Positions 4,789 through 27,129 of a stretch of 41,733 nucleotides of DNA are shown piece by piece (within the stretch, counting starts at the first letter, position 1; every line of letters begins with the position of its first letter). Source of the stretch: a virus. The notes beneath the pieces were generated by a model, which was given only the letters and a program-made list of their open reading frames with translations, was not told the DNA's origin and made no database searches. The stretch spans positions 1 through 41,733 of the IMG/VR virus record IMGVR_UViG_3300046007_006577. One strand, written 5' to 3'. A program made the position numbers and the translations under genes.

Positions 4789-4792
4789 CTGC

Positions 4793-5539
4793 GTGACCTC
4801 GGAGATCCACCACAACGAGGCTCTCATATTCCTTGAAGCCGAGCCATCCGAGAAGTACGACTTCGTCTATCTCGACCCACCGTACTACTGTCAGAGGGAC
4901 TTCTCGGAGTTCAACGACAGGTGGTCGGGTATTGACGAGTACATGGGCATGCTCTCGCCTGTGTTCAGCGAGGTGCGCCGTGTCCTCAAGCCGCACGGCA
5001 ACATCTGCATCCATGTGGATTGGCATGCCGCCCATCATGTGCGCCTCTGCCTAGACCGAGCGTTCGGTGAGGGCAACTTCCGCAACGAGATCATTTGGTG
5101 CTACGCCTCGGGTGGGGCATCGAAGCGTCACTTCTCACGGAAGCACGACAACCTGTTCGTCTATGCCAAGGATGCCGACCTCTGCCGTTTCAACCTGATC
5201 CGTGAGCCGTATCCCCGTGACTACGGCGACAGGGAGGGCTTCCACCCTGACGGTCGAATAATGAACGATTGGTGGCAGATCGGGATCCTGTCCACGACCG
5301 CCAAGGAGCGGAACGGGTATCCGACGCAGAAACCATTGGAACTTCTTGAGCGTCTGATGAAAGCCTACACGAATGGAGGCGATCTAGTCCTTGACCCCAT
5401 GTGCGGCTCGGGCACCACTTTAGAGGCGGCGTTGCGTCTCGGCAGAAGTTCAGTCGGAGTGGATAAGAACCCTGCGGCGGTTTCGACCGCCAAGGCAAGG
5501 GTCGAGCGGTGCGTGGGTCTGAACGGACTCATGGAATGA
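4793..5539 (+). CDS. DNA methyltransferase, beta class, DPPY type
   Basis: A 248-aa amino-methyltransferase. Catalytic motif IV DPPYY (28-32) comes before the SAM-binding motif I DPMCGSGTT (201-209), the order of beta-class enzymes; DPPY favours N6-adenine over N4-cytosine as target. The TRD region between holds WCYASGGASKRHF and HDNLFVYAKD, typical of the Type III/orphan N6A group. No ATG is in frame; the GTG at 4793 sits 4 nt after the previous stop. The stop overlaps the ATG of a second methyltransferase, so the two are co-translated. No restriction enzyme is present, so this is probably for protecting phage DNA from host restriction or for marking it. Confidence 0.9.
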   Translation: MTSEIHHNEALIFLEAEPSEKYDFVYLDPPYYCQRDFSEFNDRWSGIDEYMGMLSPVFSEVRRVLKPHGNICIHVDWHAAHHVRLCLDRAFGEGNFRNEIIWCYASGGASKRHFSRKHDNLFVYAKDADLCRFNLIREPYPRDYGDREGFHPDGRIMNDWWQIGILSTTAKERNGYPTQKPLELLERLMKAYTNGGDLVLDPMCGSGTTLEAALRLGRSSVGVDKNPAAVSTAKARVERCVGLNGLME

Positions 5540-6603
5540 CCGAAGACTCCCGCTACCGCATCATCGAAGGCGACTGCATCAAGGGAATGAAGACGCTGCC
5601 TGACTGCTGCGTTCACACCTGCATCACCTCGCCGCCGTACTTCGGACTTCGTGACTACGGCAAGGAAGATCAGATCGGTCTTGAGGAGACTCCCGATCAA
5701 TATGTCGCCAAGATGGTCGAGGTGTTTCGTGAGGTTCGGAGGGTTCTCCGTGACGATGGAACCGTGTGGCTGAACTTGGGTGACTCGTACTCCGCAGGAG
5801 GCAGGGGCAAGGGACAGGATGGAAGCATCCAACAGGGAAACAAGGGTTCCATGACGGGAGCCGTGTTCAACTCATGGAAGGTCGAAGGCTTCAAGAACAA
5901 GAACCTCTTGGGCATTCCTTGGCGTGTAGCCTTTGGTTTACAGGCTGACGGTTGGTACTTGAGGCAGGACATCATTTGGTCGAAGCCAAACCCGATGCCC
6001 GAGTCTGTGACCGACCGTTGCACCAAGTCACATGAGTACATATTCCTCCTCACCAAGTCGCAGAAGTACTACTACGACTATGAGGCGATCAAGGAGCCAC
6101 TTGCTGAAGCATCGTTCGGTGGTATTGGCGGCAAACGCAACAAGCGTTCCGTTTGGACTGTGACCACCAAGCCGTTCCGTGGAGCGCACTTCGCCACCTT
6201 CCCGAAGGACTTGATCGAACCTTGTGTCCTTGCAGGTACGAGCGCACATGGGTGTTGCTCCAAGTGCGGTCAACCATACGAGCGTGTGATGGAGAAGACG
6301 GGCGAGTTCCAACGCCGTTGGTCAACCAACAACGCAGAAGGCTCTCCCTACGAGACTCAGTCGAGCATGCAGAAAACCTACAGGACTGCGGGATGGTCTG
6401 TCGATTGTCCCTGTGGATGCAGCGCACCCGTAGTCCCCTGCACGGTGCTTGATCCGTTCACGGGCAGCGGAACCACCTGTGTCGTGGCGTTGAACCACGG
6501 CAGGAAGTTCATCGGCACCGAGTTGAACCCCGAGTACATCAAGATCGCAACCGACAGGATCGCCGACGAGGCACCGATGAACCTCATGGATGTGATGGTG
6601 TGA
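5536..6603 (+). CDS. DNA methyltransferase, SPPY type with Cys cluster
   Basis: A 355-aa site-specific DNA methyltransferase, also beta-class in order. Motif IV is TSPPYFGLRDYG (31-42), which favours N4-cytosine (SPPY) although N6-adenine members exist; motif I is DPFTGSGTT (306-314). Between them a pair of cysteine clusters (GCCSKCG near 240 and CPCGC near 297) looks like a zinc ribbon inserted in or near the target-recognition region. It differs from its upstream neighbour in both catalytic tetrad and size, so the pair is not a duplication and probably modifies two different sites. Its ATG overlaps the upstream stop, and its own stop overlaps the GTG of DNA polymerase. Confidence 0.9.
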   Translation: MTEDSRYRIIEGDCIKGMKTLPDCCVHTCITSPPYFGLRDYGKEDQIGLEETPDQYVAKMVEVFREVRRVLRDDGTVWLNLGDSYSAGGRGKGQDGSIQQGNKGSMTGAVFNSWKVEGFKNKNLLGIPWRVAFGLQADGWYLRQDIIWSKPNPMPESVTDRCTKSHEYIFLLTKSQKYYYDYEAIKEPLAEASFGGIGGKRNKRSVWTVTTKPFRGAHFATFPKDLIEPCVLAGTSAHGCCSKCGQPYERVMEKTGEFQRRWSTNNAEGSPYETQSSMQKTYRTAGWSVDCPCGCSAPVVPCTVLDPFTGSGTTCVVALNHGRKFIGTELNPEYIKIATDRIADEAPMNLMDVMV

Positions 6604-10966: not shown

Positions 10967-11489
10967 GAAACAGGACAAGACCTTTCTCATAGACGGGTTC
11001 GATGGTGCCTTCGTGGGAGGACTCCGCAAGTTCGGTCAGACATTGCCCATCGCAGTCTACGACTACGACAAGGTGATGGAGATCGTGATGTCGAGTGGAA
11101 TCTCCGACGAGGACGATGCCGCAGAATACATTGAGTTCAACATCCTCGGTGGGTATCTCGGCGAAGGCACCCCCTGCATGATCTTCCCTTGCTCCCTGCG
11201 TGAGTTTACGGAGGAGTGTGGTGATGACCTCGACCCGTCCGTGATGGAGCGTGACTTCGGCGACGAGGATCCGAACGCATACCCCGACGAAGACAACATG
11301 ACGGAGAGGGAGCGCATGTTGTACCGTCAGGCGATCAGCGACTTCTGCCTGAACTTCATCCGCTATGTAAAGGAAACGAACCCCAAGGTGTACTCCCTCG
11401 CCAAGGACTACGCCAAGGACTACTCGGGCAACTCCGTGGTCGAGTTCGTTGACATCGAAGAAGAAGAGGATGGGAAGAAGCAGCCATGA
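10956..11489 (+). CDS. Small acidic conserved phage protein
   Basis: A 177-aa acidic protein downstream of uvsX. It has a compact N-terminal region (PIAVYDYDKVMEIV, then AAEYIEFNILGGYLGEGTP around 50-75) of a type I recall as 'hypothetical' in T4-like marine phages, and a highly acidic, Asp/Glu-rich C-terminus (DIEEEED). No catalytic motif is seen. Two adjacent ATGs (10953, 10956) are possible; I chose the second because GGGGG at 10947-10951 gives better spacing. The stop overlaps the first glycosyltransferase start, so this gene couples uvsX to the glycan island. Function unknown. Confidence 0.75.
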   Translation: MSNKKQDKTFLIDGFDGAFVGGLRKFGQTLPIAVYDYDKVMEIVMSSGISDEDDAAEYIEFNILGGYLGEGTPCMIFPCSLREFTEECGDDLDPSVMERDFGDEDPNAYPDEDNMTERERMLYRQAISDFCLNFIRYVKETNPKVYSLAKDYAKDYSGNSVVEFVDIEEEEDGKKQP

Positions 11490-12277
11490 GGATGGTCATC
11501 AAGTTCCCTACGAGGGGGCGACCCGAAAAGTTCATCTCTGTACTGAACAGGTACATCAACTTCCTTTCGGGCATGCACGAAGTCAAGTTCGTCATCTCGT
11601 TCGATCACGACGATCCGACGATGAACAACGACAACATGTGGTCCGTCTTCAACCGACTGAACGCTCAGTTGGAAGGCAAGATCCTCCCTGTGTGCGGGAA
11701 GTCCACGGGCAAGATCTCCGCTATCAACGCCGACCTAGACAGGGTCGTGTCCTTCAGACCCGATGTGATCCTTCTCGCATCGGATGACATGATCCCCGTC
11801 CACGGCGGCTACGACGATGTCATCGCCAAGGCTATGGCGAAGTTCTTCCCCGACACGGACGGGGTCCTCCACTTCAACGACGGATTCTCGGGGCAGAACA
11901 GGCTGATCACCCTGTCGATCCTCGGTCGCAAGTACCTCGACAGGTTCGGGTACCTCTACTACCCAGGCTACAAGTCGGTGTTCTGCGACAACGAGTTCAC
12001 CGATGTTGCGAGGATGCTCGGCAAGGTCGTGTACATCGACCATGTCATCATCCAACACCAATGGGTCGGTGCGGTCAATCCCAACGATGCCCTCCACCGC
12101 CGCAACGAGTCGGTGGAGATGTACGAGCATGATAAGGCGGTCTATCTCGACCGAGCCTACAACAATTTTCATCTGAAGCCTGAGGAGATCGTGAATGCCT
12201 TGGTCATATCGCCACAAGTTGTCGATTCTCATCCCGACCCTAATCGAACGGAAGGACTCCCTTCAGTCGCTCCGTGA
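11486..12277 (+). CDS. Glycosyltransferase-like protein (GT-A, GT2-type)
   Basis: A 263-aa protein that opens the glycan island. The start IKFPTRGRPEKF (residues 5-16) is the first strand and nucleotide loop of GT2-type glycosyltransferases, and ILLASDDMIPV near 95 supplies a DD motif in place of DxD for metal and nucleotide sugar. It ends with a region GAVNPNDALHRRN. It is cytoplasmic with no membrane segment. The last 27 residues (from 12195) overlap the next glycosyltransferase in another frame, so the functional domain probably ends near residue 235. Sugar donor and acceptor cannot be read from sequence. Confidence 0.75.
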   Translation: MRMVIKFPTRGRPEKFISVLNRYINFLSGMHEVKFVISFDHDDPTMNNDNMWSVFNRLNAQLEGKILPVCGKSTGKISAINADLDRVVSFRPDVILLASDDMIPVHGGYDDVIAKAMAKFFPDTDGVLHFNDGFSGQNRLITLSILGRKYLDRFGYLYYPGYKSVFCDNEFTDVARMLGKVVYIDHVIIQHQWVGAVNPNDALHRRNESVEMYEHDKAVYLDRAYNNFHLKPEEIVNALVISPQVVDSHPDPNRTEGLPSVAP

Positions 12278-15017: not shown

Positions 15018-15913
15018 GTCGGTCATACAGCAGGATCCTCTTCTTCAACGACTGCAACAACGGCGACAACCACTACAGCCGACAGTTCTTGCGCCACATC
15101 TCTTCCTTGGTGGGGGTGGATTGTGCATACTCGCACTTTCGTTGCGACCGAATACTCGCCGACCTTCCGATGCGTCTCATCAGGGTTGACACCCGACCTC
15201 TTCATCAGGAGTCCTTTCATCTCAACGCTGACGGCACTCTCTTTATGAACACATGGGTGGGTCATCAAAACTTCAAGTGGTTCACCCCGAACGGCTGCAC
15301 CCTCCACAACAACTACAGGATGTTCTCCGACAACTGCAAGGCGATAGGGGTGACCCTACCTCCCGAGGTCGAGTGCATCCCCACCATCGACTACGCAAGG
15401 TTGGGCATCCTCGGCTCGGTGCAGGTTGACAGGAACATACTCGTATCCAACGGACCCTGCGCTTCGGGACAGGCTTACAACTTCGACATGAACCCCGTTG
15501 TCGAGGCACTTGCGGATAAGCATCCGTCATGTCGTTTCTTCGTCACCGACCCTTTCACCACGAACAGGGTCAACATTTTTGATGCGAACAAGACTGTCTC
15601 CGCTCCGATGGGGAAGTCCAACTTGGTCGAACTTTCACACTTCTCCCTGTCCTGTCCGATCATTGTCGGGAGAGGCAGCGGTCCATTTTGCTTCTCCCAT
15701 GTGCGTGAGAATCTCATGGATCCCGAGAAGACTTTCATTGTGTTTGGCAACGGTGCCCCTGAAGGTCATTGGGTGACGATGGCAGACTACAACCTTCCTC
15801 AACATGCAAAGCAGTTGTGGGGCGAGTGTCATGTCAACGGCACGGGAGACTGTTTTTCCCTCGCATTCGACATGATCGACGGAGAGATCAATGCCAAGTT
15901 TGGTAGTCGGTAG
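15014..15913 (+). CDS. Unknown protein of the glycan island
   Basis: I do not recognise this 299-aa protein with certainty. It starts RILFFNDCNNGDNHYSRQF (residues 7-25) and contains WVGHQNFKW and PTIDYARLGIL, then ILVSNGPCASGQA near 140 and VGRGSGPFCFSH near 216. The alternating hydrophobic strand pattern (ILVSNG, CRFFVTDPF, CPIIVGRGSG) suggests a GT-B-like two-Rossmann architecture. Its place among glycosyltransferases and ATGA coupling to the previous gene suggest a glycosyltransferase or transfer-related role, which is inference. TAG stop; it overlaps the next start by 23 nt. Confidence 0.65.
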   Translation: MSRSYSRILFFNDCNNGDNHYSRQFLRHISSLVGVDCAYSHFRCDRILADLPMRLIRVDTRPLHQESFHLNADGTLFMNTWVGHQNFKWFTPNGCTLHNNYRMFSDNCKAIGVTLPPEVECIPTIDYARLGILGSVQVDRNILVSNGPCASGQAYNFDMNPVVEALADKHPSCRFFVTDPFTTNRVNIFDANKTVSAPMGKSNLVELSHFSLSCPIIVGRGSGPFCFSHVRENLMDPEKTFIVFGNGAPEGHWVTMADYNLPQHAKQLWGECHVNGTGDCFSLAFDMIDGEINAKFGSR

Positions 15914-16727
15914 TACCTCCCAACTCGCACGGTACTTCCCTCGGGATTTCGTCCGCATTTCCTCTAGGGACATGGACCTCGACTCGCTCTCCGAACAGGA
16001 GTGGGACGAAGTCTACATCTGCTTCGCCGAACAGAGGACCTACCTAGCCAACAGCGACTCCCCTGATGTCGAGCGCATCTTCCACGACACGAATGTCGTG
16101 AGGACGATGGAGGTCATTGATGCCCTGCATCCTGTTTGTCGGAGGATCGTGTACTACTCCACGGCTGAACTTTGGAATGCAACTTCGGGTCCCGTCGCCC
16201 CATCGGACCCATACACATTCCATGAAAACCACTACACGAAATCCAAGAGCAGCGTCTCGCTCCTGTTGCGTGACAAGGTCAAGTATCCGAAGGTGACGGT
16301 AGCCCATCCGTTCAACTTCAACAGCGTTCACCGAGGGGGCGAGTATCTGTTCGGCAAGATCTTCCGATCAATAGTGACCGAGTCCCCCGTCGCCATCGGC
16401 GATGTCGATTACTACAGGGAGATCCTGCATCCCACCATGGTGGTCAAGGCGACATTGGACTCCACGGAGAACGACCCTTTGGGTACGGACATCGTCATCG
16501 GCTCGGGCAGACTCGTCCATGTCGGGGACTTCATACGAAAACTCTACCTTCGATTTGGGATGGACATGGACAAAATGGCGATCAGGGACCCACAGAATCC
16601 TCCCCGACCGTCGATATACCGCAAGTGCCTTTTCTATTCGCACAGGCACGATCCCCGATTTTCGGAGGAAGCCGTGATCAACCTCCTTACCTACGAACTA
16701 TCTACTGTGAAGGAATTTTCGACATGA
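15891..16727 (+). CDS. NAD(P)-dependent epimerase/dehydratase (SDR)
   Basis: A 278-aa extended SDR. The N-terminal VVGSTSQLARYFP is a degenerate dinucleotide loop; VYYSTAELW (about 88-96) holds the catalytic Thr/Ser, and HYTKSK gives the YxxxK pair Y115/K119. PFNFNSVHRGGEY follows as substrate region. It acts on a nucleotide-activated sugar (epimerase, reductase or dehydratase); specificity is not evident. The loop differs from the canonical GxxGxxG (GSTSQLA), which may alter NAD(P) choice. It sits before the DegT/ColD-like gene and could reduce or epimerise its keto-sugar product, but that is inference. Confidence 0.8.
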   Translation: MPSLVVGSTSQLARYFPRDFVRISSRDMDLDSLSEQEWDEVYICFAEQRTYLANSDSPDVERIFHDTNVVRTMEVIDALHPVCRRIVYYSTAELWNATSGPVAPSDPYTFHENHYTKSKSSVSLLLRDKVKYPKVTVAHPFNFNSVHRGGEYLFGKIFRSIVTESPVAIGDVDYYREILHPTMVVKATLDSTENDPLGTDIVIGSGRLVHVGDFIRKLYLRFGMDMDKMAIRDPQNPPRPSIYRKCLFYSHRHDPRFSEEAVINLLTYELSTVKEFST

Positions 16728-17080
16728 GCAACGACATCGCCCTGACAATCGAAGATGCCATCAGGCATAAGGTCCATGAGACGCTTCGTCTTTCGGGATC
16801 CAATCCTCCCGAACTTCCCGACAATCTCGTCGCTACCGACAACCTCGGTGAAGTGATTGAGAAACTCTGCATCCTCCACATCCGTACATGGTTCCTTGAG
16901 GACATGGTAGGTGTCGCAAAGACGGACGAAGAGGTCGCCTCCTTGAAGAGGAAGATCGACATCTGCTTCAAGCAGAAGAGACCGCAGTACATCCAAGCGA
17001 TCAACCGCATGGTTGACGATGCGGTGATCAACCAAAGGCGCATCACGGAAGACTCCGTGAAGATCTACAAGGGGAACTGA
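16724..17080 (+). CDS. Small helical DUF4254-like protein
   Basis: A 118-aa, mostly helical protein. The segment EKLCILHIRTWFLEDM (about 47-62) followed by EEVASLKRKIDICFKQKRPQYI resembles the small DUF4254 proteins found in bacterial polysaccharide loci, though I cannot confirm it by search. There is no catalytic motif, signal or membrane segment. Its start overlaps the SDR stop (ATGA) and its stop shares one base with the aminotransferase-like start. A role as a partner or regulator of glycan enzymes is plausible from position alone. Confidence 0.6.
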   Translation: MSNDIALTIEDAIRHKVHETLRLSGSNPPELPDNLVATDNLGEVIEKLCILHIRTWFLEDMVGVAKTDEEVASLKRKIDICFKQKRPQYIQAINRMVDDAVINQRRITEDSVKIYKGN

Positions 17081-18249
17081 TGATTCACCCAATTACCTTG
17101 GTGCGTGACACCATCGATCAGGATGACATCGGTTCCTTGATCGAATGGCTCAAAACCAACCCACGCCTCACCAAGGGGGTGAAGACGGTTGAGTTTGAAC
17201 AGGCGTGGAGCGGTTGGCTCGGCTGCAAGTACTCCGTGTTCGTGAACTCGGGCTCATCTGCGAACCTTGCCATCCTGTACGCCCTCATCATCTCGGGTAG
17301 GCTTAGGAACAAGAAGGTGGTGTTCCCCTGCCTCTCTTGGGTCACCACCGTGGCACCTGCCATCCAACTCGGGCTTGAACCGATCCTTTGCGAGACGGAC
17401 AGCCGCAACCTCGGGATCGATGTCGCAGAGTTTGAGAAGATCTGCGAGCGGGAGAGTCCCGCTGCCGTGATGATCGTGCATGCACTTGCCTTCCCCAACG
17501 ACATGCGGGGCATCAGGGAGGTGTGCGAGAAGTACGGTGTGATCCTGCTTGAGGACTCATGCGAGAGCGTGGGTACCTTGGTGGATGGAAAGAAGACAGG
17601 CACTTTCGGTCTTGCCTCTTCGTTCAGCACATACTACGGTCACCACTTCTCGACCATCGAAGGCGGCTTCGTCTGCACCGATGACTACGAGTTCTACAAC
17701 ATCGTCAAGAGCATCCGATCCCATGGATGGTCTAGGGACCTTGACGAGGTGACCCGTAGAGATCTCCAACTGAAGTACGGGATCGATGACTTCAGGAACC
17801 TCTACACCTTCTACCATGCGGGATTCAACCTGCGCTCGACGGACCTACAGGCGTTCATCGGGATCAGTCAGTTGGAGAAACTCGACCGCTTCTGCGAGAT
17901 GCGCTACGAGAACCTGCTGACATACGACAGGCTGATCCGAAACCCGTATTGGAAGATCGACATCTCGCAGTTCGACTTCGTGTCCAACTTCGCATACCCC
18001 GTGATCCATCCCCTGTCTGCGACGATGGTCGAGAAACTGACGGCAGCGCATGTCGAATGCCGACCGTTGATAGCAGGAAGCATCTCAAGGCAACCGTTCT
18101 TCTACGAGAGGTATGGAAAGAAGGCGTATCCGTTCTCGGATCGCATCCACGACCACGGCATCTACCTACCGAACAACCCGACGATGACAGAGGACGAAAT
18201 CAACATGGTGTCCAACATCATCAACGGAGTCACATCACATCCGAGTTGA
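17080..18249 (+). CDS. DegT-fold sugar enzyme, ColD-like 3-dehydratase
   Basis: A 389-aa protein of the DegT/DnrJ/EryC1/StrS fold. Features in order: FVNSGSSANLAILYAL (about 49-64, cofactor phosphate loop), FPCLSWVTTVAPAI, ILLEDSCESVGT (Asp that binds the pyridine N), SSFSTYYGHHFSTIEGG around residue 188, then HDHGIYLPNNP. At the position where aminotransferases have the Schiff-base Lys, this protein has His (H188, H189). Histidine there is the hallmark of GDP-4-keto-6-deoxymannose-3-dehydratase ColD, which uses PLP/PMP for C3 deoxygenation in the colitose pathway. The length also fits ColD. The exact nucleotide and sugar are inferred; the neighbours contain no GDP-mannose dehydratase, so the substrate would come from the host or elsewhere in the genome. 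Confidence 0.85.
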   Translation: MIHPITLVRDTIDQDDIGSLIEWLKTNPRLTKGVKTVEFEQAWSGWLGCKYSVFVNSGSSANLAILYALIISGRLRNKKVVFPCLSWVTTVAPAIQLGLEPILCETDSRNLGIDVAEFEKICERESPAAVMIVHALAFPNDMRGIREVCEKYGVILLEDSCESVGTLVDGKKTGTFGLASSFSTYYGHHFSTIEGGFVCTDDYEFYNIVKSIRSHGWSRDLDEVTRRDLQLKYGIDDFRNLYTFYHAGFNLRSTDLQAFIGISQLEKLDRFCEMRYENLLTYDRLIRNPYWKIDISQFDFVSNFAYPVIHPLSATMVEKLTAAHVECRPLIAGSISRQPFFYERYGKKAYPFSDRIHDHGIYLPNNPTMTEDEINMVSNIINGVTSHPS

Positions 18250-18264
18250 AAGAGGAAAAGCAGC

Positions 18265-18951
18265 ATGTCGCTTATTGACCTGAATCAAAAACCTCTACCT
18301 CTGTCGATACACATCCTCACCACATCTCTGAACAGGGATAGGCATCAGTCTATTCTGAACACATGGCTCAAAGATTTCTACGACTATGTGTTCTACACCG
18401 ATTTCACTTCTGAAATAGGAAATCAAGTAGAACTTACCACGAACACGGAGTACCACTCCAATGGGGAAAAGCACATTCTTGAAGTGAATAGAATCGTGAG
18501 GGAGAAGATCCACAACGATTACCAATGGTTCTATTTCTGCGATGATGATACGGTCCCCAACATATCAAGGATCTTGGACTACTGTCGTACCGCAGACCGA
18601 AGTAAGGTTCATGCTTGGACGGACACCTGTTGGGCAGAGGATCCGACTTTACTATCCGTTTCGGGTGGTGCTGGATATCTCGTTCCTTCTGAAGTATTCC
18701 AAGGAAGGACACCCCCAAGGCTGAAACGGATCGTGTGGTCCGATGTTCAATTTGCTCTGTGGCTGCGAGAGAACGGCATACCGTTGCAACACAATTCCGA
18801 GTTCAAGCACAACATCCCATCTCAGTTCGGAATCGACATTTCCACGGTGGAGGGCAGGAACTTGGTGAGGGAACACATGTCTTTCCACTATGTCAAGAAC
18901 CACGAACTGCGATCTGCGATATGGGAAATCTACAACACACCCAAGGAATGA
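18265..18951 (+). CDS. Fringe/GT31-like glycosyltransferase
   Basis: A 228-aa glycosyltransferase resembling Fringe-type/beta-1,3 transferases (GT31). WFYFCDDDT (residues 88-96; D93-D95) is the metal-binding DDD motif, and SGGAGYLVP (133-141) is the typical GGAG(Y/F) block. WSDVQFALWLRENG (about 160) matches the (E/W)DV..G acceptor/catalytic region, and EHMSFHYVK supplies the late histidine. It is noticeably AT-richer than its neighbours. The start ATG at 18265 has AGAGGA about 10 nt upstream. Known members add sugars to glycans; the donor is unknown here. Its different base use suggests recent transfer into the island. Confidence 0.8.
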   Translation: MSLIDLNQKPLPLSIHILTTSLNRDRHQSILNTWLKDFYDYVFYTDFTSEIGNQVELTTNTEYHSNGEKHILEVNRIVREKIHNDYQWFYFCDDDTVPNISRILDYCRTADRSKVHAWTDTCWAEDPTLLSVSGGAGYLVPSEVFQGRTPPRLKRIVWSDVQFALWLRENGIPLQHNSEFKHNIPSQFGIDISTVEGRNLVREHMSFHYVKNHELRSAIWEIYNTPKE

Positions 18952-18970
18952 AGATATGGGATTGCAATCC

Positions 18971-19061
18971 ATGAAGACTCTCGTCACAGGCGCAGCAGGA
19001 TTCAAAGGACGAGATCGGCATGGTTTCAGACATCGTCAACAGCGTCACATTGGAGAAATGA
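18971..19061 (+). pseudogene. Scar: epimerase 5' head joined to DegT-type 3' tail
   Basis: From ATG 18971 the reading MKTLVTGAAGF is the N-terminus of an SDR epimerase, matching the start of the intact gene at 19634 (VTGAAGF). The frame is lost after about 12 codons. From 19008, in another frame, DEIGMVSDIVNSVTLEK then TGA (19059-19061) matches the C-terminus of the DegT-like gene (DEINMVSNIINGVT). The two DNA tails differ at roughly a quarter of positions, so the donor was a diverged paralogue, not the neighbour itself. The remnant is best explained by a deletion that fused the head of one sugar gene to the tail of another. Confidence 0.75.
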
Positions 19062-19628
19062 ATGGACCACATTTACACACAGCCGCAGTTTGGAGAGAAT
19101 TGGTTTACCTATCCGAACCTCTACTCACAATTTGTCCGTGAACTGCCAAGCGGTTCCAAGATGGTGGAGGTTGGTTGTTGGAAGGGAAAGAGCATCGCCT
19201 ACCTCGGGGTCGAGATCATCAACTCAGGGAAGGACATCCATGTCCATGCCATCGACACTTGGGAGGGATCGCCAAACGAACCTCCACATCAGCAGGATGT
19301 CTATGTCCGAACGGGGAAACTCTATCAGTTGTTCCTGTCGAACATCTCCCCCGTCTCTTCCGTGGTGTTTCCCGTGAAGGTCGCTTCGGTCGAGGGCGCA
19401 AAGAGGTATGCCGATGAGTCCTTGGATGTCGTGTTCATCGACGCATGCCACACCTATGAGTGCGTCAAGGAGGACATTGCAGCATGGCTTCCGAAGGTGA
19501 AGAAAGGCGGCTACCTTGCGGGACATGATTACCCTTGGAGCCATGAGGATGCCGTAAAGAGAGCGGTGGATGAGAGCGTTTCTCCAATCCAAGTCACCGA
19601 GGGATGTTGGGTCTATAAGAAAAGGTAA
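19062..19628 (+). CDS. Class I SAM methyltransferase (Methyltransf_24-like)
   Basis: A 188-aa Rossmann methyltransferase. Motif I is MVEVGCWKGKS (about 34-44), the post-I acidic region AIDTWEG, motif IV-like VVFIDACHTYECV (about 123-135) with DA-HxYE, and GGYLAGHDY. This pattern is typical of the TylF/Methyltransf_24 group of O-methyltransferases acting on sugars and small metabolites. In this context it may methylate a sugar of the phage-made glycan. The ATG at 19062 immediately follows the TGA of the gene scar, so the upstream tail supplies its ribosome context. Confidence 0.85.
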   Translation: MDHIYTQPQFGENWFTYPNLYSQFVRELPSGSKMVEVGCWKGKSIAYLGVEIINSGKDIHVHAIDTWEGSPNEPPHQQDVYVRTGKLYQLFLSNISPVSSVVFPVKVASVEGAKRYADESLDVVFIDACHTYECVKEDIAAWLPKVKKGGYLAGHDYPWSHEDAVKRAVDESVSPIQVTEGCWVYKKR

Positions 19629-19633
19629 TCAAG

Positions 19634-20539
19634 ATGAATGCCATGGTCACAGGTGCGGCGGGCTTCATCGGCTCGCATATGGTCGATCTCCTACTGAACC
19701 ACAGGCACTCGGTTGTCGCCGTAGACAACGAGAGTTCAGAGTCGCATGCCAAGTTTCATTGGAACCCGCTTTGTGATAACAGATTGTCTGATGTTTGCGA
19801 CCTCACGCCACTCGACTTCGACGGTGTGGATGTGGTGTTCCATATGGCGGCTGAAGTCAGCATCCCGAAGTGCATGGCACACCGTGATCAGGCTTTCAGC
19901 ACCAATGTGATCGGAACATGGAATGTCCTCGACTGCGCACAGAAGGCGGGAGTGCGTCGGCTCGTCTTCTCGTCCACCTCGGCGATCTACGGAGTCAGGG
20001 CAAGCGGTTTCTCTCCTCCTGTGAAGGAGACTGATTCCATCGACTGCCCGAACAACTACGCAACGAGCAAGTTCATCGGGGAGCAGTTGTGCAAGCAGTA
20101 CTCTCTTCTCCACGGACTCGACACGGTGTGCCTCAGGTACTTCAATGTCTTCGGCGAGAGACAGGCTGACAGGGGGTCATATAGCCCCGTCATCGCATCG
20201 TTCCTGCGGATGCGAAGGGAAGGCAAGCCCCTCCTCATATTTGGAGATGGTCATCAGTCGAGGGACTATGTCCATGTCTCGGATGTGGTCAGGGCGAACC
20301 TCATGGCGGCTGACCATCCCCACGCCCTCCACGGTGAGGCAGTCAACATCGGAAGTTGGCGGTCTTCGTCGGTACTAGAGATCGCCCGTGTAATATCCCC
20401 CGACGAAAGGTCGATATGCTTCATGCCGAAGCGTGAGGGTGAGGTCAGGCATTCGTTGGCTGACTGTGGCAAGGCTGCTTCCCTGTTCGGTTGGAAGGCA
20501 AAGACGGATGTGATGGATTGGATACGGAATGCAACCTAA
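19634..20539 (+). CDS. UDP-glucose 4-epimerase-like SDR
   Basis: A 301-aa extended SDR of the GalE/nucleotide-sugar epimerase type. TGAAGFIGSH at 6-15 is the canonical NAD loop, DVVFHMAAEVS near 70-80 the substrate-side strand, FSSTSAIYG with the catalytic Ser/Thr, NYATSKF gives the YxxxK pair (Y142, K146), and RYFNVFGERQ is the sugar-nucleotide block. It likely epimerises a UDP- or GDP-sugar for the island's glycosyltransferases. It is the last gene of the island; it overlaps the helicase start by 11 nt, so the island's end is joined exactly onto the replication gene. Confidence 0.9.
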   Translation: MNAMVTGAAGFIGSHMVDLLLNHRHSVVAVDNESSESHAKFHWNPLCDNRLSDVCDLTPLDFDGVDVVFHMAAEVSIPKCMAHRDQAFSTNVIGTWNVLDCAQKAGVRRLVFSSTSAIYGVRASGFSPPVKETDSIDCPNNYATSKFIGEQLCKQYSLLHGLDTVCLRYFNVFGERQADRGSYSPVIASFLRMRREGKPLLIFGDGHQSRDYVHVSDVVRANLMAADHPHALHGEAVNIGSWRSSSVLEIARVISPDERSICFMPKREGEVRHSLADCGKAASLFGWKAKTDVMDWIRNAT

Positions 20540-22013: not shown

Positions 22014-22087
22014 GGACGGGTGCCTGAATCGGAAAAAGGTGGTCGCTTATAACGGCCCTCATGTGGGTTCGATCCCCACCCCGTCTA
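22014..22087 (+). tRNA. tRNA-Ile (anticodon UAU)
   Basis: A complete cloverleaf. Acceptor stem 22014-22020 (GGACGGG) pairs with 22080-22086 (CCCGTCT, one G-U at the end); U8 is 22021; D stem CCT/AGG with GG in the loop (22031-22032); anticodon stem 22041-22045 with 22053-22057; loop CTTATAA with U33 and anticodon TAT (22048-22050); five-base variable loop; T stem GTGGG/CCCAC with loop TTCGATC (22068-22074). Discriminator A at 22087; CCA is not encoded. The UAU anticodon reads AUA, a codon that appears rare in the GC-rich genes but common in the AT-rich end of the window. Confidence 0.93.
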
Positions 22088-22089
22088 CT

Positions 22090-22097
22090 CATAGATA
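22090..22097 (+). promoter_or_regulatory. CATAGATA promoter-like motif
   Basis: CATAGATA followed by C, three bases after the tRNA and 11 nt before the next ATG. The same octamer occurs at 31803 and 34506, each before a start codon. It differs from T4 TATAAATA at two positions and may be a variant late promoter. Confidence 0.45.
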
Positions 22098-22108
22098 CGG
22101 AAAATACC

Positions 22109-23266
22109 ATGCTCACATTCAAGGAAGTCGGCACCACAGAGATCACCCGCAACAAGCACCTCCCCCATGTCGAGGACCTCATGTTCCTTGAGGGAAAGGG
22201 AGGTCTCGCCTCCTCGCTCCACATCCTCGCCGAGGTGATGCGTCAGTCCGATGGCATCAGGATGTCGGTGAAGTGGGATGGTCGCCCCGCCATCGTGTGT
22301 GGGATCAATCCCGAGAACTCCAAGTTTTTCGTCGGCACGAAGGCGGCGTTCAACAAGGATGTCCGTGCGTTCGACACCAAGGATGGGATCATGGCGGGGG
22401 TGGAGAACCCCGACCTCGCCGAGAAGTTGGTCGAGTGCCTCGCATGGCTCCCTAGCCTCGGCATCCGAGGTGTCGTGCAAGGCGACCTCCTGTTCACCTC
22501 CGATTCCATCACGGTCACCGAGGAGGAGGTGGCGTTCCAACCCAACGCCATCAGGTACTCGGTCGGAAGGAACACCGCCGTGGGCAAGGCGATCAGCAAC
22601 GCCAAGTTGGGTGTCGCCTTCCATACGGTCTACGAGGGCAAGACCATGGGATCGCTCACGGTCTCCTCGTTTGGATTCGACCCTTCCATGGTCGCACAGG
22701 ATTCCCCCGTTTGGTTCCCGAGCATCTCCGTACACACCCTCACGGAAAGCACTCCACTTGAGAACGCCACCAATGAGGCGAGGCTCCACTACTGCGAGGA
22801 GCAGTCGGAGAAGGTCGGGCAGTTCCTCGGGACCATGCTCTCAAACAAGGAACTCGTCCCCTTCCTCTCCCCCTACATCAACGCCACGGTCATGGCGAAC
22901 ATCTCGGAGTGTTCGGCACGGGGTCTTGCCCTCTACATCGAAACCAAGGTGGGCAAGGAGATCCTCAAGTTGAAGACCGACAAGGGCAGGTCGGACAAGA
23001 AGGCACTAGCAGACCGCCTGATCAACTTCACCGAGGTCTACGCCAAGCAGTTCGATACGGCGTTTCTCCTACATAGGAAGATGGCTCTCGTAAAGGAATC
23101 TCTCCTCCAAAGGGTGCCTCTTACCGAGTTCCGCCATCACTTTGTCGATGCCGAGGGCATGCGACCGACCGAGCCCGAGGGAATCGTCGTGAGTGAGTCC
23201 AAGAGAGCCGTGAAGTTCGTGACACGGTCACGGTTCTCGGCGCAGAACAGGAAGGTAAACGGGTGA
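22109..23266 (+). CDS. KWDG-motif phage protein (DUF6267-like)
   Basis: A 385-aa protein of a type I recall as DUF6267 in T4-like marine phages. The motif SVKWDGRPAIVCG (about 52-64) resembles the lysine-containing motif I (KxDG) of covalent nucleotidyltransferases such as DNA/RNA ligases and capping enzymes. It continues with GVVQGDLLFT (a D-rich strand as in ligase motif III) and EGIVVSESKRAVKFVTR at the C-terminus, which resembles ligase motifs IV and V (EGxV and KxK). A ligase-like adenylation fold is therefore plausible, but no nick-sealing OB domain is visible. Its GTG-overlapping stop couples it to the giant gene. The ATG at 22109 follows the tRNA and CATAGATA motif. Confidence 0.75.
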   Translation: MLTFKEVGTTEITRNKHLPHVEDLMFLEGKGGLASSLHILAEVMRQSDGIRMSVKWDGRPAIVCGINPENSKFFVGTKAAFNKDVRAFDTKDGIMAGVENPDLAEKLVECLAWLPSLGIRGVVQGDLLFTSDSITVTEEEVAFQPNAIRYSVGRNTAVGKAISNAKLGVAFHTVYEGKTMGSLTVSSFGFDPSMVAQDSPVWFPSISVHTLTESTPLENATNEARLHYCEEQSEKVGQFLGTMLSNKELVPFLSPYINATVMANISECSARGLALYIETKVGKEILKLKTDKGRSDKKALADRLINFTEVYAKQFDTAFLLHRKMALVKESLLQRVPLTEFRHHFVDAEGMRPTEPEGIVVSESKRAVKFVTRSRFSAQNRKVNG

Positions 23267-26200
23267 AAGGTTTCTCCACACACATCAGCGAGCGTGGTCC
23301 GAGGGACACCGCAGTCTTCTCGTTCGGGCGCATGAATCCTCCGACAACGGGACATGGTGTGGTGGTGGACACGGTCGTTGAGGAGGCTAGGGCTCTTGAT
23401 GCCGATCACTTCGTCTTCCTCTCCCGCACACAGGATGCAAAGGTGAACCCCCTCTCGACCGAGAAGAAGGTCGAGTACATGAAGGCGTTCTTCCCGAATA
23501 CAAACATCTCCACCGAGGCTACGAACCCCTTCGATGCCGTCCTGCATCTCTGCGACATGGGATACAAGAACATCGTCCTCGTCACGGGAGATGATCAACA
23601 GGCTGACTACGAGCGCATCCTGAAGTACAAGGGAACGGTCGCCGCCAAGGATCCAAAGGGAAGGTCCTACTCGTTTGAGTCGTTCCGAGTCCGTGTGGCG
23701 GGGGAGCCCCGCTCCAAGGATTCGACGGGACTCGCAGCCGTGGGTGCGACCGATGCCCGTGAGGCGGCTTTCAGAGGCGACTTCGCCGCATTCTCCGCAC
23801 TCATCCCCACCGAGGACGGTCTCCTCAAGGAGCGGCTCTACAACGATGTCCGCAAGGGTCTCGGTCTCAACGAGGAGTATGTCGAGGAGGCTCGGGAGAA
23901 CGGAGACAAGGTCACCATCCTCGCCCTGACATCCTCGGACAAGGATCTCTCGGACACGATTGAGAAGATGGGGGAGATCTGCAAGAAGCGCAAGATCCCC
24001 TTCTATGCCGTCAAGACGAAGAAGGCGCAGATCGACCTGTCGAGCGTCGTGGCGAAGAAGATCACCATCAAGAACTATGACGGCGAAGGCAAGGATGTGA
24101 CCATCGTTCCGAGCGACACGATAGCAATCGTCCGTGGCGGGGTTATGAACAGCGAGGTCGGGGTTGCGATCCTCACCATCCTTCAGAACAACGGCGTGTT
24201 CATGGTGAACGAGAAGGGGGGTATGGAACTCTGCGCCAACAAGTTGGAGACCGCCATCGCCCTCAAGAAGCACGGTCTGCCCCACCCAAAGACCGCCTAT
24301 GTCTCTAGCGAGGCGAACATCGAAGCCGCAGTCAAGGAGATCGGGGGCAAGTTTCCCGTCATCTGCAAGACCCTGACGGGTGCCGAGGGCATCGGTGTCT
24401 CCAAGATCGAAAGCATGGAGAGCCTCAAGAGCGTCCTACAGACGCTTTGGAAGTTCGGTGCCGAGATCATCATCCAAGAGTTCCTCCCCGACTTCAAGAA
24501 CGATGTCCGCAGCATCGTCCTCAACGGCAAGATCTTCGCCTGTGCCAAGCGTGACAAGGCACCGAAGGACTTCCGCACGAACATCGCCCGTGGATCGAAG
24601 GGCGGCTCGTTCCAACTCTCCGACGAGGAGATCAAGTTGGTCGAGCAAGCCGCTCGGGTGAGCAAGTGCTACTATGTCGGAATCGACCATGTCATCAACG
24701 ATGGCAAGCCGTACATCATTGAGATGAACGCAAGCCCTGGCAGCGGCAACATCTACTACCGCTACTACGAGGACGGCAAGGGCAAGGACAATGTCAAGGG
24801 CGAGGAGTTGGTCGAGGACTTCCTTGACCACATCCTTGTCAAGGCAAATTGGAAGTTGTTCTCAAACCTCGCAGTCCGTGAGACGGTGAAGGTCGATGGC
24901 GTGGAGTACCAAGCCAAGATCGACACGGGGAACAGCGGCTACAACATGATCCATGCCACGGAGATCAAGGACAACGGCGACCACACCGTCACCTTTAGGC
25001 TCCCGAGCGGCAAGAAGGTGACGAAGAAGATCATCAGCCGCATCAGCGTGAAAAGCGGGATCGGGGAGAAGAAGCGTCTCGTCGTGCTGATGGACATCGA
25101 CTTCCACGGGAAGCACTATCCGAACATCAAGTTCTCCCTCGGCGACCGAAGCCACATGTCGAGCAAGGTCCTCGTCGGTCTCCGATTCCTCGGACAGACG
25201 GGCAGCGTGGTTGACCCCGCCGATGCCATCTATCCTCAACCCGACCCCAAGAAGAAGGGGGTGACCGAGGAGGAGGAAGAGGAGGAGGAGATCTCGGAGA
25301 TGTCTGCGGTCGAGGTGAAGGACGCAGCCAAGGAGATCATCACAAGCCCGTTGGTGGCGACCAAGGTATTCGCTCTCGCCAACAAGAAGAAAGTGCTGAC
25401 TCCCGAGGCTTTCAAGAAGGAAGTTGAGACAACGAAGCAGGAAATCCTCGCCCACGCATACAAGGTCACGGGCGCATCCGTGACCTTGAACATGTTCCTA
25501 CAGAAGACCATGTTGGGCAAGTTCTTGGTGAAGATCCTCGACAAGGTCCTCATCCAAGGAACCATCGACCCCGTGATTGTGGGGAAGGCTCTCCACTCGG
25601 CTATTCCGTATCTCGGCATGGGCGACGATGTCGATGGCAATCCCCTCGTCGAAGCCGATGTCACCAAGGGCAAGAAATTCAAGACCAAGTCGGGCAAGAC
25701 GAGGAAGTCGCCCGAGGACAAGACCTCGGGTCTCCCGAAGAAGTATGTCTCGGGATTGAGCAAGGGCGAGGCGAAGACCCGAAGCAGGGAACTCGCCAAG
25801 CGGAAGGACATGCCCGATGACGATCCCAAGACTTGGGAGTTCGTGAATCCACGGGAGAAAAAGATGAAGACGAAGCCGTCGAAGTACACGACGCTGTTCA
25901 AGAAACTCGCCAAGAAGGGCAAGGTCAAGGCTATCAAGAGCGGCTACGAGCATGACGAGGCTTTGGAGCGGCTGTGGTCCATTGACGAGTCCCAAGAGAC
26001 GAACTCGTCCAAGTTGAGGCTAGCCATCGCCTACGAGGACCGATGCCGTGAGCGAGGCATGTCGGAGGCTACCGAACTCGTCAGGGCGTACATCGAACAA
26101 CTCAAGGAAGTCCGCAACGAAGAGATCGGCACGGACGAGCCCACCACCATTGACGAGGACTTCGACTACCTGCTGATGGAGGTGAGTCCTCCTAGCGGAC

Positions 26201-26865
26201 CCGCCCGTCGATTCTCCAAGAAGGAGAAGGTCAAGGCTCAGTTCAAGAAGAGGTACGGCAAAGATTGGAAGCAGGTCTTCTACGCCACGGCATGGAAGAT
26301 GCACGGCAAGTCCGAGTCGGTCGTGGTCGCCGACGAATGGCTTGCCGAGGCTGACAGGATCCACGGCGTGATGAAGTGGACCTCCTTGAGCAAGCGTGGT
26401 CCCCTTGAGATAGGCAGCGACGAGATCGTCAAGACCTACAAGCGTGACACTCCAGGTGAGCGTGAGCGTCTCAAGGAGGAGGGCGGCGAGGAGATCGATG
26501 ACGAGAAGAGGCGGCTCTACAAGGAGTGGCAGAAACTCGTCAACATGTCGGGCAAGGAGATCCAATCGTTCCTCGACTCCGATGGTGGCGAGGAGGCGGG
26601 ATTGAGCCGCAAGGAGGCGGGTAAGGCGGGAGCGGGTGGCAAGAAGATCACCAGCGGTCGTGACTCTGCCCGTGCGATCATCCGAATGCTCGACACCCCG
26701 ATGGTGAAGTGGAGTGCCAACGATTGGAAGTGGGCGGGTAAGCAAGTCAACTTCATCTCCCGCATGAAGGGTGCGAAGGGCGGCATGCGTGACGAGAAGG
26801 GTCGCCCCACCCGCAAACTCCTAGCACTCAAGGTTTGGGGTCACAACCCCGAGAAGAAAGGCTGA
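23263..26865 (+). CDS. 1200-aa fusion: NTase, ATP-grasp, retropepsin-like, phage tail domains
   Basis: A very long multidomain protein. Residues 1-190: nucleotidyltransferase with FGRMNPPTTGHG (21-32), the NMNAT/cytidylyltransferase-type HxGH-like site, as in many T4-like marine phages. Residues 290-520: RimK-like ATP-grasp, with NKLETAIALKKHGLPHPKT, PVICKTLTGAEGIGV (nucleotide loop) and EMNASPGSGN (metal site, about 487-496). Residues 540-650: retropepsin-like domain with AKIDTGNSG (D554-T-G) and RFLGQTG, which accompanies RimK-type proteins. Then a Glu-rich linker (about 669-676), a basic low-complexity region, an AQFKKRYGKDWKQVFYATA block (about 990-1010), and a C-terminal domain ending WGHNPEKKG. 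GTG start overlaps the upstream stop. Substrate and role unknown; modification of proteins by amino-acid ligation is inference. Confidence 0.8.
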   Translation: MKGFSTHISERGPRDTAVFSFGRMNPPTTGHGVVVDTVVEEARALDADHFVFLSRTQDAKVNPLSTEKKVEYMKAFFPNTNISTEATNPFDAVLHLCDMGYKNIVLVTGDDQQADYERILKYKGTVAAKDPKGRSYSFESFRVRVAGEPRSKDSTGLAAVGATDAREAAFRGDFAAFSALIPTEDGLLKERLYNDVRKGLGLNEEYVEEARENGDKVTILALTSSDKDLSDTIEKMGEICKKRKIPFYAVKTKKAQIDLSSVVAKKITIKNYDGEGKDVTIVPSDTIAIVRGGVMNSEVGVAILTILQNNGVFMVNEKGGMELCANKLETAIALKKHGLPHPKTAYVSSEANIEAAVKEIGGKFPVICKTLTGAEGIGVSKIESMESLKSVLQTLWKFGAEIIIQEFLPDFKNDVRSIVLNGKIFACAKRDKAPKDFRTNIARGSKGGSFQLSDEEIKLVEQAARVSKCYYVGIDHVINDGKPYIIEMNASPGSGNIYYRYYEDGKGKDNVKGEELVEDFLDHILVKANWKLFSNLAVRETVKVDGVEYQAKIDTGNSGYNMIHATEIKDNGDHTVTFRLPSGKKVTKKIISRISVKSGIGEKKRLVVLMDIDFHGKHYPNIKFSLGDRSHMSSKVLVGLRFLGQTGSVVDPADAIYPQPDPKKKGVTEEEEEEEEISEMSAVEVKDAAKEIITSPLVATKVFALANKKKVLTPEAFKKEVETTKQEILAHAYKVTGASVTLNMFLQKTMLGKFLVKILDKVLIQGTIDPVIVGKALHSAIPYLGMGDDVDGNPLVEADVTKGKKFKTKSGKTRKSPEDKTSGLPKKYVSGLSKGEAKTRSRELAKRKDMPDDDPKTWEFVNPREKKMKTKPSKYTTLFKKLAKKGKVKAIKSGYEHDEALERLWSIDESQETNSSKLRLAIAYEDRCRERGMSEATELVRAYIEQLKEVRNEEIGTDEPTTIDEDFDYLLMEVSPPSGPARRFSKKEKVKAQFKKRYGKDWKQVFYATAWKMHGKSESVVVADEWLAEADRIHGVMKWTSLSKRGPLEIGSDEIVKTYKRDTPGERERLKEEGGEEIDDEKRRLYKEWQKLVNMSGKEIQSFLDSDGGEEAGLSRKEAGKAGAGGKKITSGRDSARAIIRMLDTPMVKWSANDWKWAGKQVNFISRMKGAKGGMRDEKGRPTRKLLALKVWGHNPEKKG

Positions 26866-26868
26866 CCG

Positions 26869-27129
26869 ATGAAGAACTTTGGGGGAATCAAGAAGGACAT
26901 CATGGAAGCCCGCATCGCCGCCTTGGAGAAGAAGGCGAAGAAGAGCGGCATCCCATACGGCATCCTAAAGAAGGTCTACGACAGGGGAATGGCTGCATGG
27001 AAGGGGGGTCACCGTCCAGGTGCCACCTCACACCAATGGGCATTTGCCCGTGTCAACTCGTTCATCGTGGGCGGGAAGACCCGCAAGACCGCCGATGCCG
27101 ACCTTTGGAAGAAAGCCAAGGGCGGTTGA
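26869..27129 (+). CDS. Small conserved phage protein (KKVYDRGMAAW motif)
   Basis: An 86-aa basic protein. The central block GILKKVYDRGMAAWKGGHRPG (quoted in part: KKVYDRGMAAW, about residues 34-44), then QWAFARVNSFIVGGKTRKTADADLW, is a domain I recall as widely conserved in marine phage genomes, often fused to larger proteins such as the gene just upstream. It has no catalytic signature. The start ATG at 26869 is 3 nt after the giant gene's stop. It may be a separated piece of the same functional set; function unknown. Confidence 0.8.
   Translation: MKNFGGIKKDIMEARIAALEKKAKKSGIPYGILKKVYDRGMAAWKGGHRPGATSHQWAFARVNSFIVGGKTRKTADADLWKKAKGG

What the first reader, a model, noticed from the sequence alone, without database searches (positions are those of the whole stretch)
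23263..26865. 1200-aa fusion of nucleotidyltransferase, RimK-like ATP-grasp and retropepsin-like domains
One frame combines an HxGH-like nucleotidyltransferase, an ATP-grasp ligase, a DTG retropepsin-like domain and two phage-specific terminal modules with a basic low-complexity linker. ATP-grasp plus protease-like pairs in cells modify proteins (RimK-type). In a phage this could be a virion- or host-protein-modifying system coupled to nucleotide chemistry. I know of no characterised protein with this exact order.
Basis: partly seen in the sequence, partly recalled or inferred. Interest (0 to 1): 0.72.

Follow-up and report, generated by a model that had tools for sequence, protein, structure and literature searches.

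The report
Phage head-packaged ligase–retropepsin fusion enzyme
A freshwater relative of phage T4 makes one giant protein that joins a nucleotidyltransferase, an amino-acid ligase and an HIV-protease-like protease behind a T4-type head-targeting tag, and it carries the very poly-glutamate stretch that bacterial proteases of this kind are known to cut, so it may be a self-cutting enzyme package shipped inside the virus head.

Summary
The 1200-aa frame is real and conserved. In 80 IMG/VR relatives the nucleotidyltransferase–RimK–retropepsin core lies in one frame wherever the contig allows, with conserved catalytic motifs. It is no assembly artefact. (1) The protein begins with a T4 internal-protein-type capsid-targeting sequence (MKGFSTHISE|R). 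Stand-alone marine RimK–retropepsins carry one too, 79 of 79 with complete starts against 0 of 399 other + strand ORFs. Homologues of both halves were found in virions: YerA41 g112 and cyanophage T4-GC190. (2) An encoded Glu8 tract follows the retropepsin. Bacterial RimB, the same kind of protease, cuts six or more contiguous Glu, including an internal Glu8 linker (PMC11957791). (3) In the two long relatives that hold both genes and have this tract, the only other Glu6+ tract sits in the T4 gp22-like head scaffold. Best reading: a head-core enzyme package whose retropepsin may cut itself and the scaffold. Head targeting is well supported. Cleavage is inferred and not universal: one sister clade and all 80 marine stand-alone proteins lack tracts. 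No activity was tested here.

The parts
23263..26865 (+). whole fusion gene, 1200 aa, GTG start; overlaps the end of the upstream gene by 4 nt
   Evidence: conserved in 80 loci
23263..23292 (+). T4 internal-protein-type capsid-targeting sequence, residues 1-10 (F4, H7, I8, E10), predicted prohead-protease cut after E10
   Evidence: motif M..[FYW]...[IL].E: 1 of 103 + strand ORFs >=80 aa of the window, 0 of 116 on the - strand; T4 N-termini read from NC_000866; CTS positions from PMC9026906
23296..23886 (+). HxGH-type nucleotidyltransferase (cytidylyltransferase-like), residues 12-208; NPPTTGH at 25-31
   Evidence: PHROG 3041 E 4.5e-40; motif conservation
23911..24855 (+). RimK-type ATP-grasp ligase, residues 217-531; EMNASPG at 487-493; R291, R416, N489 correspond to RimK R64, R189, N262
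24880..25224 (+). RimB-like retropepsin (Pfam Zn_protease), residues 540-654; catalytic D554 in DTGNS
25267..25290 (+). Glu8 tract, residues 669-676, candidate self-cleavage site between core and C-terminal modules
   Evidence: RimB specificity from PMC11957791
25291..26862 (+). variable C-terminal modules, residues 677-1200 (helical segment, DUF5824-like, DUF3140-like, DUF6321-like); residues 801-1200 have pI 9.7, net +26
22061..23266 (+). DUF6267 gene (PHROG 455), overlapping the fusion start by 4 nt; invariant K71xDG, E373-G374, K385; predicted DNA/RNA ligase-type adenylyltransferase fold. The true start is probably the internal ATG near 22109
26869..27129 (+). 86-aa basic protein with DUF5824, matching the C-terminus of PHROG 3041; starts MKNF...IME|AR

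Best explanation
The gene encodes a head-core 'internal protein' of a T4-like phage. A capsid-targeting sequence of about ten residues directs the chain into the scaffolding core and is cut off by the gp21-like prohead protease. The payload is an enzyme package: a nucleotidyltransferase, a RimK-type glutamate ligase and a RimB-type retropepsin. When crowded and dimerised in the core, the retropepsin cuts contiguous poly-glutamate. In this lineage that means the encoded Glu8 tract in its own chain, which separates the enzymatic core from the basic C-terminal modules, and the Glu7-11 tract in the gp22-like scaffold, helping to clear the core. The enzymes stay in the head and are ejected into the next host, where the RimK part could glutamylate host proteins. 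Shown here: the fusion, its motifs and the RimK fold, the targeting motif, the tracts and the scaffold link. Shown in homologues by others: presence of each half in virions, and poly-Glu cleavage by bacterial RimB. Inferred: catalysis, self-cleavage, scaffold cleavage, ejection, host target. My step probabilities: head-packaged 0.85; catalytically competent ligase and protease 0.7; self-cleavage at Glu8 0.45; scaffold as substrate 0.35. The overall confidence below is for head packaging plus an active RimK/retropepsin payload; the cleavage steps carry their own lower figures.
For: Fusion: 80 relatives; DTG, TxGH, EMNASPG and DFR motifs conserved; 26 of 26 aligned members match Pfam RimK and Zn_protease. 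Head targeting: pattern M.{2,4}[FY]..[FYH][IL].E found in 23 of 76 fusion ORFs, 3 of 1149 other + ORFs and 0 of 1174 - ORFs in the fusion loci; 79 of 79 stand-alone marine RimK-retropepsins against 0 of 399 other + ORFs; in the T4 stretch read it picks only ipII and ipIII, 2 of 47 ORFs. Virion homologues: YerA41 g112 'Ribosomal protein modification protein*' by LC-MS/MS (matched to YerA41_066 by position two genes after RNR alpha), and S-SM1 T4-GC190 cytidylyltransferase (gene identity via P-HM2). Poly-Glu: RimB needs about 6 contiguous Glu and an internal Glu8 linker suffices in vitro and in vivo. Glu>=6 runs in 38 of 78 fusion ORFs against 0 of 1213 other + ORFs >=100 aa; mixed GAA/GAG codons; 0 of 20,000 composition shuffles of P0001 give Glu8. 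In 12 whole records (1.17 Mb) Glu6 codon runs occur only in the fusion (7 records) and in the head scaffold (2 of those 7). 21 of 21 scaffold loci >=63% identical to P0010 carry Glu7-11; 0 of the other 59 carry Glu6 or more.
Against: Only three records hold both fusion and scaffold (G001 Glu6/Glu7, G003 Glu7/Glu8, G004 none/none), and G004 is the sister clade, so the concordance is phylogenetically about one event. Of 74 loci read through the tract region, 28 have no Glu run >=4 and 8 have only Glu4-5, including several sublineages inside the tract clade. All 80 marine stand-alone proteins have no Glu run over 2, and YerA41, Mosig and Melnitz records have no Glu6 codon run, so poly-Glu cannot be the general encoded substrate. 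Scaffolds are acidic (17% Glu), and shuffles reach the observed run in 3 and 13 of 20,000 for two of them. The strict T4 spacing fits only 18 of 77 fusion ORFs. YerA41's RimK-retropepsin and P-HM2's nucleotidyltransferase lack the motif at their annotated starts. The retropepsin fold was not tested alone. RimK residue S68 is Met here.
Confidence: 0.5

Rival explanations
1. A cytoplasmic host-modifying enzyme made during infection: RimK tags ribosomal protein S6 (or another C-terminus) with glutamates and the retropepsin trims or stimulates it, as in Pseudomonas. The Glu tract is only a flexible acidic hinge, and virion detection is incidental.
For: Closest folds and sequences are RimK. RimB tunes RimK in Pseudomonas (PMC11957791). 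The YerA41 homologue is expressed in the middle period, not late. The gene sits in the replication region between the DnaB-like helicase and a primase, not with head genes.
Against: The N-terminal targeting motif is strongly enriched and shared with T4 IPII/IPIII and the marine stand-alone forms. RimK poly-Glu residue S68 is not kept. The tract is Glu-only, sits at one domain boundary and recurs in only one other gene.
Confidence: 0.25
2. A DNA-modification or nucleotide-chemistry accessory: the nucleotidyltransferase, the ligase-fold DUF6267 neighbour and the ATP-grasp act on nucleotides or DNA ends, with the ATP-grasp adding amino acids to a base or linker.
For: Conserved synteny helicase-DUF6267-nucleotidyltransferase from cyanophages to here. 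The window also carries methyltransferases, a glycosyltransferase, an epimerase and an aminotransferase. YerA41 has hypermodified thymidine.
Against: It gives the retropepsin, the Glu tract and the targeting motif no role. YerA41's modification is described as oligosaccharide in character.
Confidence: 0.1
3. A non-catalytic structural protein: the domains are retained as binding modules for head assembly.
For: Particle association of homologues; rapid shuffling of C-terminal modules.
Against: Catalytic motifs of the ligase and retropepsin are conserved across lineages only about 30% identical to each other.
Confidence: 0.1

Closest known systems
RimB retropepsin and RimK ligase of Pseudomonas; RimBK hybrid of Desulfotalea psychrophila (PMC11957791, PMC10092738)
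   Same: ATP-grasp glutamate-ligase fold plus a DTG retropepsin of the Zn_protease family in one chain; poly-Glu of six or more is the known protease substrate and is present in this chain
   Different: Order is RimK then RimB (RimBK has RimB at the N-terminus); fused to a nucleotidyltransferase, a capsid-targeting sequence and shuffling basic modules; encoded by phages; S68 of the RimK poly-Glu site is not conserved
Stand-alone RimK-retropepsin proteins of Pelagibacter phage Mosig and Yersinia phage YerA41
   Same: Same module and order, about 30% identical; YerA41 g112 found in particles; Mosig-type proteins carry a targeting motif
   Different: Not fused to a nucleotidyltransferase, no C-terminal modules, no Glu tract; YerA41's lacks a recognisable targeting motif
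PHROG 3041/395 cytidyltransferase, T4-GC190 of cyanophages, Melnitz 651-codon gene
   Same: N-terminal domain and synteny after DUF6267; T4-GC190 found in the S-SM1 virion
   Different: No RimK-retropepsin insert; Melnitz keeps a RimK as a separate gene without retropepsin
T4 internal proteins IPII/IPIII with capsid-targeting sequence
   Same: N-terminal motif with spacing as in IPIII (residues 4, 8, 10), basic protein
   Different: An enzyme of 1200 aa rather than a small basic protein; packaging not shown for this phage

Membership tests
RimK ATP-grasp (Pfam PF08443) | profile score above the curated cut-off | tested here: met
   104.2 bits against 21; 26 of 26 members at E<=0.01
RimK ATP-grasp (Pfam PF08443) | RimK fold | tested here: met
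   7qys_D Z 26.4, rmsd 3.0, 289 aligned
RimK ATP-grasp (Pfam PF08443) | poly-Glu contact residues R64, R189, N262 | tested here: met
   R291, R416, N489 by the phmmer alignment, invariant in A2; residue list from PMC10092738
RimK ATP-grasp (Pfam PF08443) | poly-Glu contact S68 | tested here: not met
   Met295 at this place
RimK ATP-grasp (Pfam PF08443) | contacts S7, R8, S14 | not tested
   outside the phmmer alignment
RimK ATP-grasp (Pfam PF08443) | glutamate ligation to a protein C-terminus | not testable with these tools
   needs enzyme assay
RimB / Zn_protease retropepsin (PF05618) | profile score above the curated cut-off | tested here: met
   30.9 bits against 27; 26 of 26 members at E<=0.01
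RimB / Zn_protease retropepsin (PF05618) | catalytic DTG | tested here: met
   D554; in the 69-row alignment every row with letters there has DTGNS
RimB / Zn_protease retropepsin (PF05618) | retropepsin fold by structure comparison | tested here: inconclusive
   the model has strands at 538-627 but the RimK domain filled the hit lists
RimB / Zn_protease retropepsin (PF05618) | cleavage of contiguous poly-Glu | not testable with these tools
   needs assay; a fitting Glu8 is present in the chain
RimBK hybrid | RimB domain N-terminal to RimK | tested here: not met
   order here is RimK then retropepsin (hybrid order)
T4-type internal (CTS) head protein | aromatic at 4, I/L at 8, E at 10 | tested here: met
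   window protein F4, I8, E10; only 18 of 77 relatives keep this exact spacing
T4-type internal (CTS) head protein | residue 7 as in IPIII (F) | tested here: not met
   H7 here
T4-type internal (CTS) head protein | phage has a gp21-type prohead protease | tested here: met
   PHROG 207 in relative record G003; the window itself lacks the head region, so this is met in a relative only
T4-type internal (CTS) head protein | presence in the virion | not tested
   only homologues: YerA41 g112, S-SM1 T4-GC190
cytidylyltransferase-like nucleotidyltransferase | T/HxGH motif and profile | tested here: met
   NPPTTGH; PHROG 3041 4.5e-40; Pfam sub-threshold for the window, 15 of 26 members at E<=0.01

The most novel reading that the evidence does not exclude
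A retropepsin (the protease class of HIV) works as a second maturation protease inside a tailed-phage head. It is delivered by a T4-type targeting sequence together with its own glutamate ligase, and it cuts lineage-specific encoded poly-Glu sites in itself and in the head scaffold, so that proteolytic maturation by an aspartic protease would exist in tailed phages as well as retroviruses.
Probability: 0.3. Interest if true: 0.92.

Novelty: new variant of a known kind. Interest (0 to 1): 0.74.

Why it matters
T4-type head maturation is known as the work of the gp21 prohead protease; a retropepsin packaged in the head would be a new player and a striking parallel with retroviruses. It also gives RimB-type proteases a candidate encoded natural substrate beyond S6 tails, a possibility the RimB authors raise. 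The marine stand-alone version is common (221 encoding stretches confirmed), so glutamate-ligase/retropepsin payloads may be widely carried in the heads of marine T4-like viruses. The predictions are sharp: cut sites at named glutamates and one catalytic aspartate.

Tried and rejected
Assembly artefact or frameshift: rejected, 80 relatives keep one frame. Glu tract as a microsatellite: not favoured, codons are mixed GAA/GAG across relatives. General poly-Glu richness of these phages: rejected for the sampled records. Poly-Glu as universal substrate of the family: rejected. Linking more fusions to their scaffolds: the fusion core was sought in 26 scaffold records and the head protein in 13 fusion records; the first found none, and the second added none beyond G001, G003 and G004; the contigs are probably fragments. 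Cellular origin: the genome-contig scan with alignment A1 found no confirmed relative (161 pattern matches, none confirmed), which with only two short patterns shows little. Relatives of YerA41's protein in viral contigs: none. C-terminal modules in named phages: three weak hits. Retropepsin alone in named phages: only YerA41, GN1, Mosig. For DUF6267 the Foldseek search gave no match at E<=0.001 and the ligase reading rests on VIA (best Z 8.9) and on motifs.

Rows dropped: the reference loci L001-L004 were left out of the counts; identical ORFs were collapsed and L001 left out (69 rows, which include the two reference ORFs L002 and L003); L154-L156 are other head proteins sharing a short motif and are not counted as scaffolds, and L149-L153 (scaffolds from the records) are not in the count of 80; ORFs without an upstream stop in the locus were left out.
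Full report
What is there. Window 23263-26865 (+) is one open frame of 1200 aa. The window is an IMG/VR virus record of 41,733 bases with phage replication genes: DNA polymerase, UvsX-like recombinase, DnaB-like helicase, primase. From the N-terminus the protein has a targeting-type peptide, a nucleotidyltransferase (12-208), a RimK-type ATP-grasp (fold 217-531), a RimB-like retropepsin (540-654), a Glu8 tract (669-676) and shuffling, mostly basic modules to 1200.

It is real. A scan of viral contigs gave 85 relatives, 80 kept. In every locus whose contig covers it, nucleotidyltransferase, RimK and retropepsin are in one frame, while the C-terminal part varies in length and module content. Catalytic motifs are conserved. 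All 26 members of a diverse alignment match Pfam RimK and Zn_protease. The RimK domain is also closest to RimK by structure: 7qys_D, Z 26.4, rmsd 3.0, 289 residues. Three of the poly-Glu-contacting RimK residues I could align are kept (R64, R189, N262) and one is not (S68).

Where it came from. In cyanophages and in Methylophilales phage Melnitz the order helicase, DUF6267, nucleotidyltransferase is kept, with small genes between, but the nucleotidyltransferase gene has no RimK-retropepsin. Melnitz has a separate 349-aa RimK and cyanophages S-RIM8 and S-RIM12 have RimK-only genes. Mosig and YerA41 have stand-alone RimK-retropepsins about 30% identical. So the fusion looks like an insertion of an existing phage module between the nucleotidyltransferase and its C-terminal modules (inference).

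Head targeting. T4 internal proteins enter the scaffold core through a ten-residue N-terminal capsid-targeting sequence, with residues 4 and 7 needed for targeting and 8 and 10 for processing (PMC9026906, section 10 read; background in PMC3012670, PMC5694885 and PMC10229621, passages). The window protein starts MKGFSTHISE|R. The pattern with IPIII spacing occurs in 1 of 103 + strand ORFs and 0 of 116 - strand ORFs of the window (ORFs of at least 80 aa), and in 18 of 77 fusions, 0 of 76 DUF6267, 0 of 1072 other + ORFs and 2 of 1174 - ORFs in the 80 loci. A motif shared by T4 IPII and IPIII and the marine proteins occurs in 23 of 76 fusions, 3 of 1149 other + ORFs and 0 of 1174 - ORFs; in 79 of 79 marine stand-alone proteins with a complete start, 0 of 399 other + ORFs and 0 of 77 - ORFs; in 17 of 597 + ORFs of the scaffold loci; and in the T4 stretch only ipII and ipIII, 2 of 47 ORFs. 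That second pattern was drawn after seeing marine and T4 examples, so its exact counts flatter it; the strict one was set from T4 IPIII, but after I had seen the fusion N-termini. Not all fusions fit either form.

Virion evidence in homologues. YerA41's Table 3 marks g112 'Ribosomal protein modification protein' as an LC-MS/MS particle protein (PMC7354516, section 28 part 1). It lies two genes after RNR alpha g110, as YerA41_066 does in the record, where it is annotated 'structural protein'; the equation of the two names is mine. T4-GC190, a putative cytidylyltransferase, was detected in purified S-SM1 virions (PMC3037559, passages and section 26); it corresponds to P-HM2 PHM2_163 right after DUF6267.

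The Glu tract. The 2025 RimB paper (PMC11957791; [quoted passage not shown] It needs about six contiguous Glu, and an internal Glu8 linker between two domains is enough for cleavage in vitro and in E. coli. The window protein has exactly Glu8 some fifteen residues past the end of its retropepsin match. Over 80 loci, 74 are readable there: 38 have Glu6-8, 8 have Glu4-5 and 28 have none (counted from the output). Glu>=6 occurs in 38 of 78 fusion ORFs and 0 of 1213 other + ORFs. Codons are mixed. The tract stays while the sequence just after it changes between modules. In the tree it belongs to one of two clades, with several losses or shortenings.

The scaffold. In 12 whole records (1,165,121 bases) Glu6 codon runs occur in 7 records, always in the fusion, and at one further place in two of them. 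That place is a T4 gp22-like head scaffold (PHROG 237, E 2e-76 and 1.5e-69), in G003 directly between the prohead protease (PHROG 207) and the major head protein (PHROG 138). Of 80 scaffold loci, the 21 at least 63% identical to P0010 all carry Glu7-11 at the same place; of the other 59 none has Glu6. Only three records hold both genes: two have both tracts, one has neither. Shuffling residues reaches the observed run in 0 of 20,000 for the fusion, and in 3, 13 and 0 of 20,000 for three scaffolds, so the scaffold run is partly helped by acidity.

How it most likely works. The fusion is packed into the prohead core by its CTS and trimmed by the gp21-like protease. At high local concentration the retropepsin dimerises and cuts poly-Glu in cis or trans, freeing the enzyme core from basic modules and nicking the scaffold. 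The enzymes remain in the head and are ejected. RimK may glutamylate a host or phage protein, with the retropepsin as editor as in Pseudomonas. Each enzymatic step is inferred. Against it: lineages and marine forms without any encoded tract, the middle-phase expression of the YerA41 homologue, and location of the gene with replication genes. In tract-less lineages the protease would need another substrate, perhaps RimK-made Glu tails.

Neighbour. DUF6267 upstream overlaps by 4 nt and is found in 79 of the 83 ORF-bearing loci examined, reference loci included. It has invariant KxDG, EG and K motifs and a confident model (pLDDT 85.6). Its VIA rows are all DNA/RNA ligases (best Z 8.9, rmsd 3.8, 182 aligned), while Foldseek alone gave no match at E<=0.001, with DNA ligases at the top. 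Recalled, from no call: the naming of KxDG, EG and K as ligase motifs I, IV and V.

Verdict. Observation confirmed; interpretation partly right; a new variant combining known kinds (RimK, RimB, T4 internal protein), with a bold, testable reading.

Noticed in passing
window 22061-23266: DUF6267 / PHROG 455 (T4-GC71 of cyanophages, unknown function) appears to be a ligase-fold covalent nucleotidyltransferase: invariant KxDG/EG/K and only DNA/RNA ligases in the VIA rows.
   Followed up: partly
window 22014-22109: tRNA-Ile (anticodon TAT) overlaps the first start codon of the DUF6267 frame; the real start is probably the ATG near 22109 (MLTFKE...), and MLSF/MLTF-type N-termini recur in its relatives.
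   Followed up: partly
L251-L330: Stand-alone RimK-retropepsins with a CTS-like N-terminus are common in marine viral contigs (221 confirmed stretches, 80 fetched).
   Followed up: partly
L154, L155 (G003, G001): A 180-191 aa ORF a few kilobases from the scaffold gene shares the motif KYxGLYxDGSGKGAxVPxP with the head scaffold.
   Followed up: no
L157-L236 (scaffold loci): Further head-region ORFs of 123-378 aa start with CTS-like peptides (MLSFKQYLREA, MLRFSKYISEQ, MKTYSEFIAEL), candidates for other head-packaged proteins.
   Followed up: no
window 4694-6603, 11486-12277, 15891-20539: Two adjacent DNA methyltransferase-like genes, a glycosyltransferase, two epimerase-like genes, an aminotransferase and a further methyltransferase suggest DNA or surface modification in this phage.
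   Followed up: no
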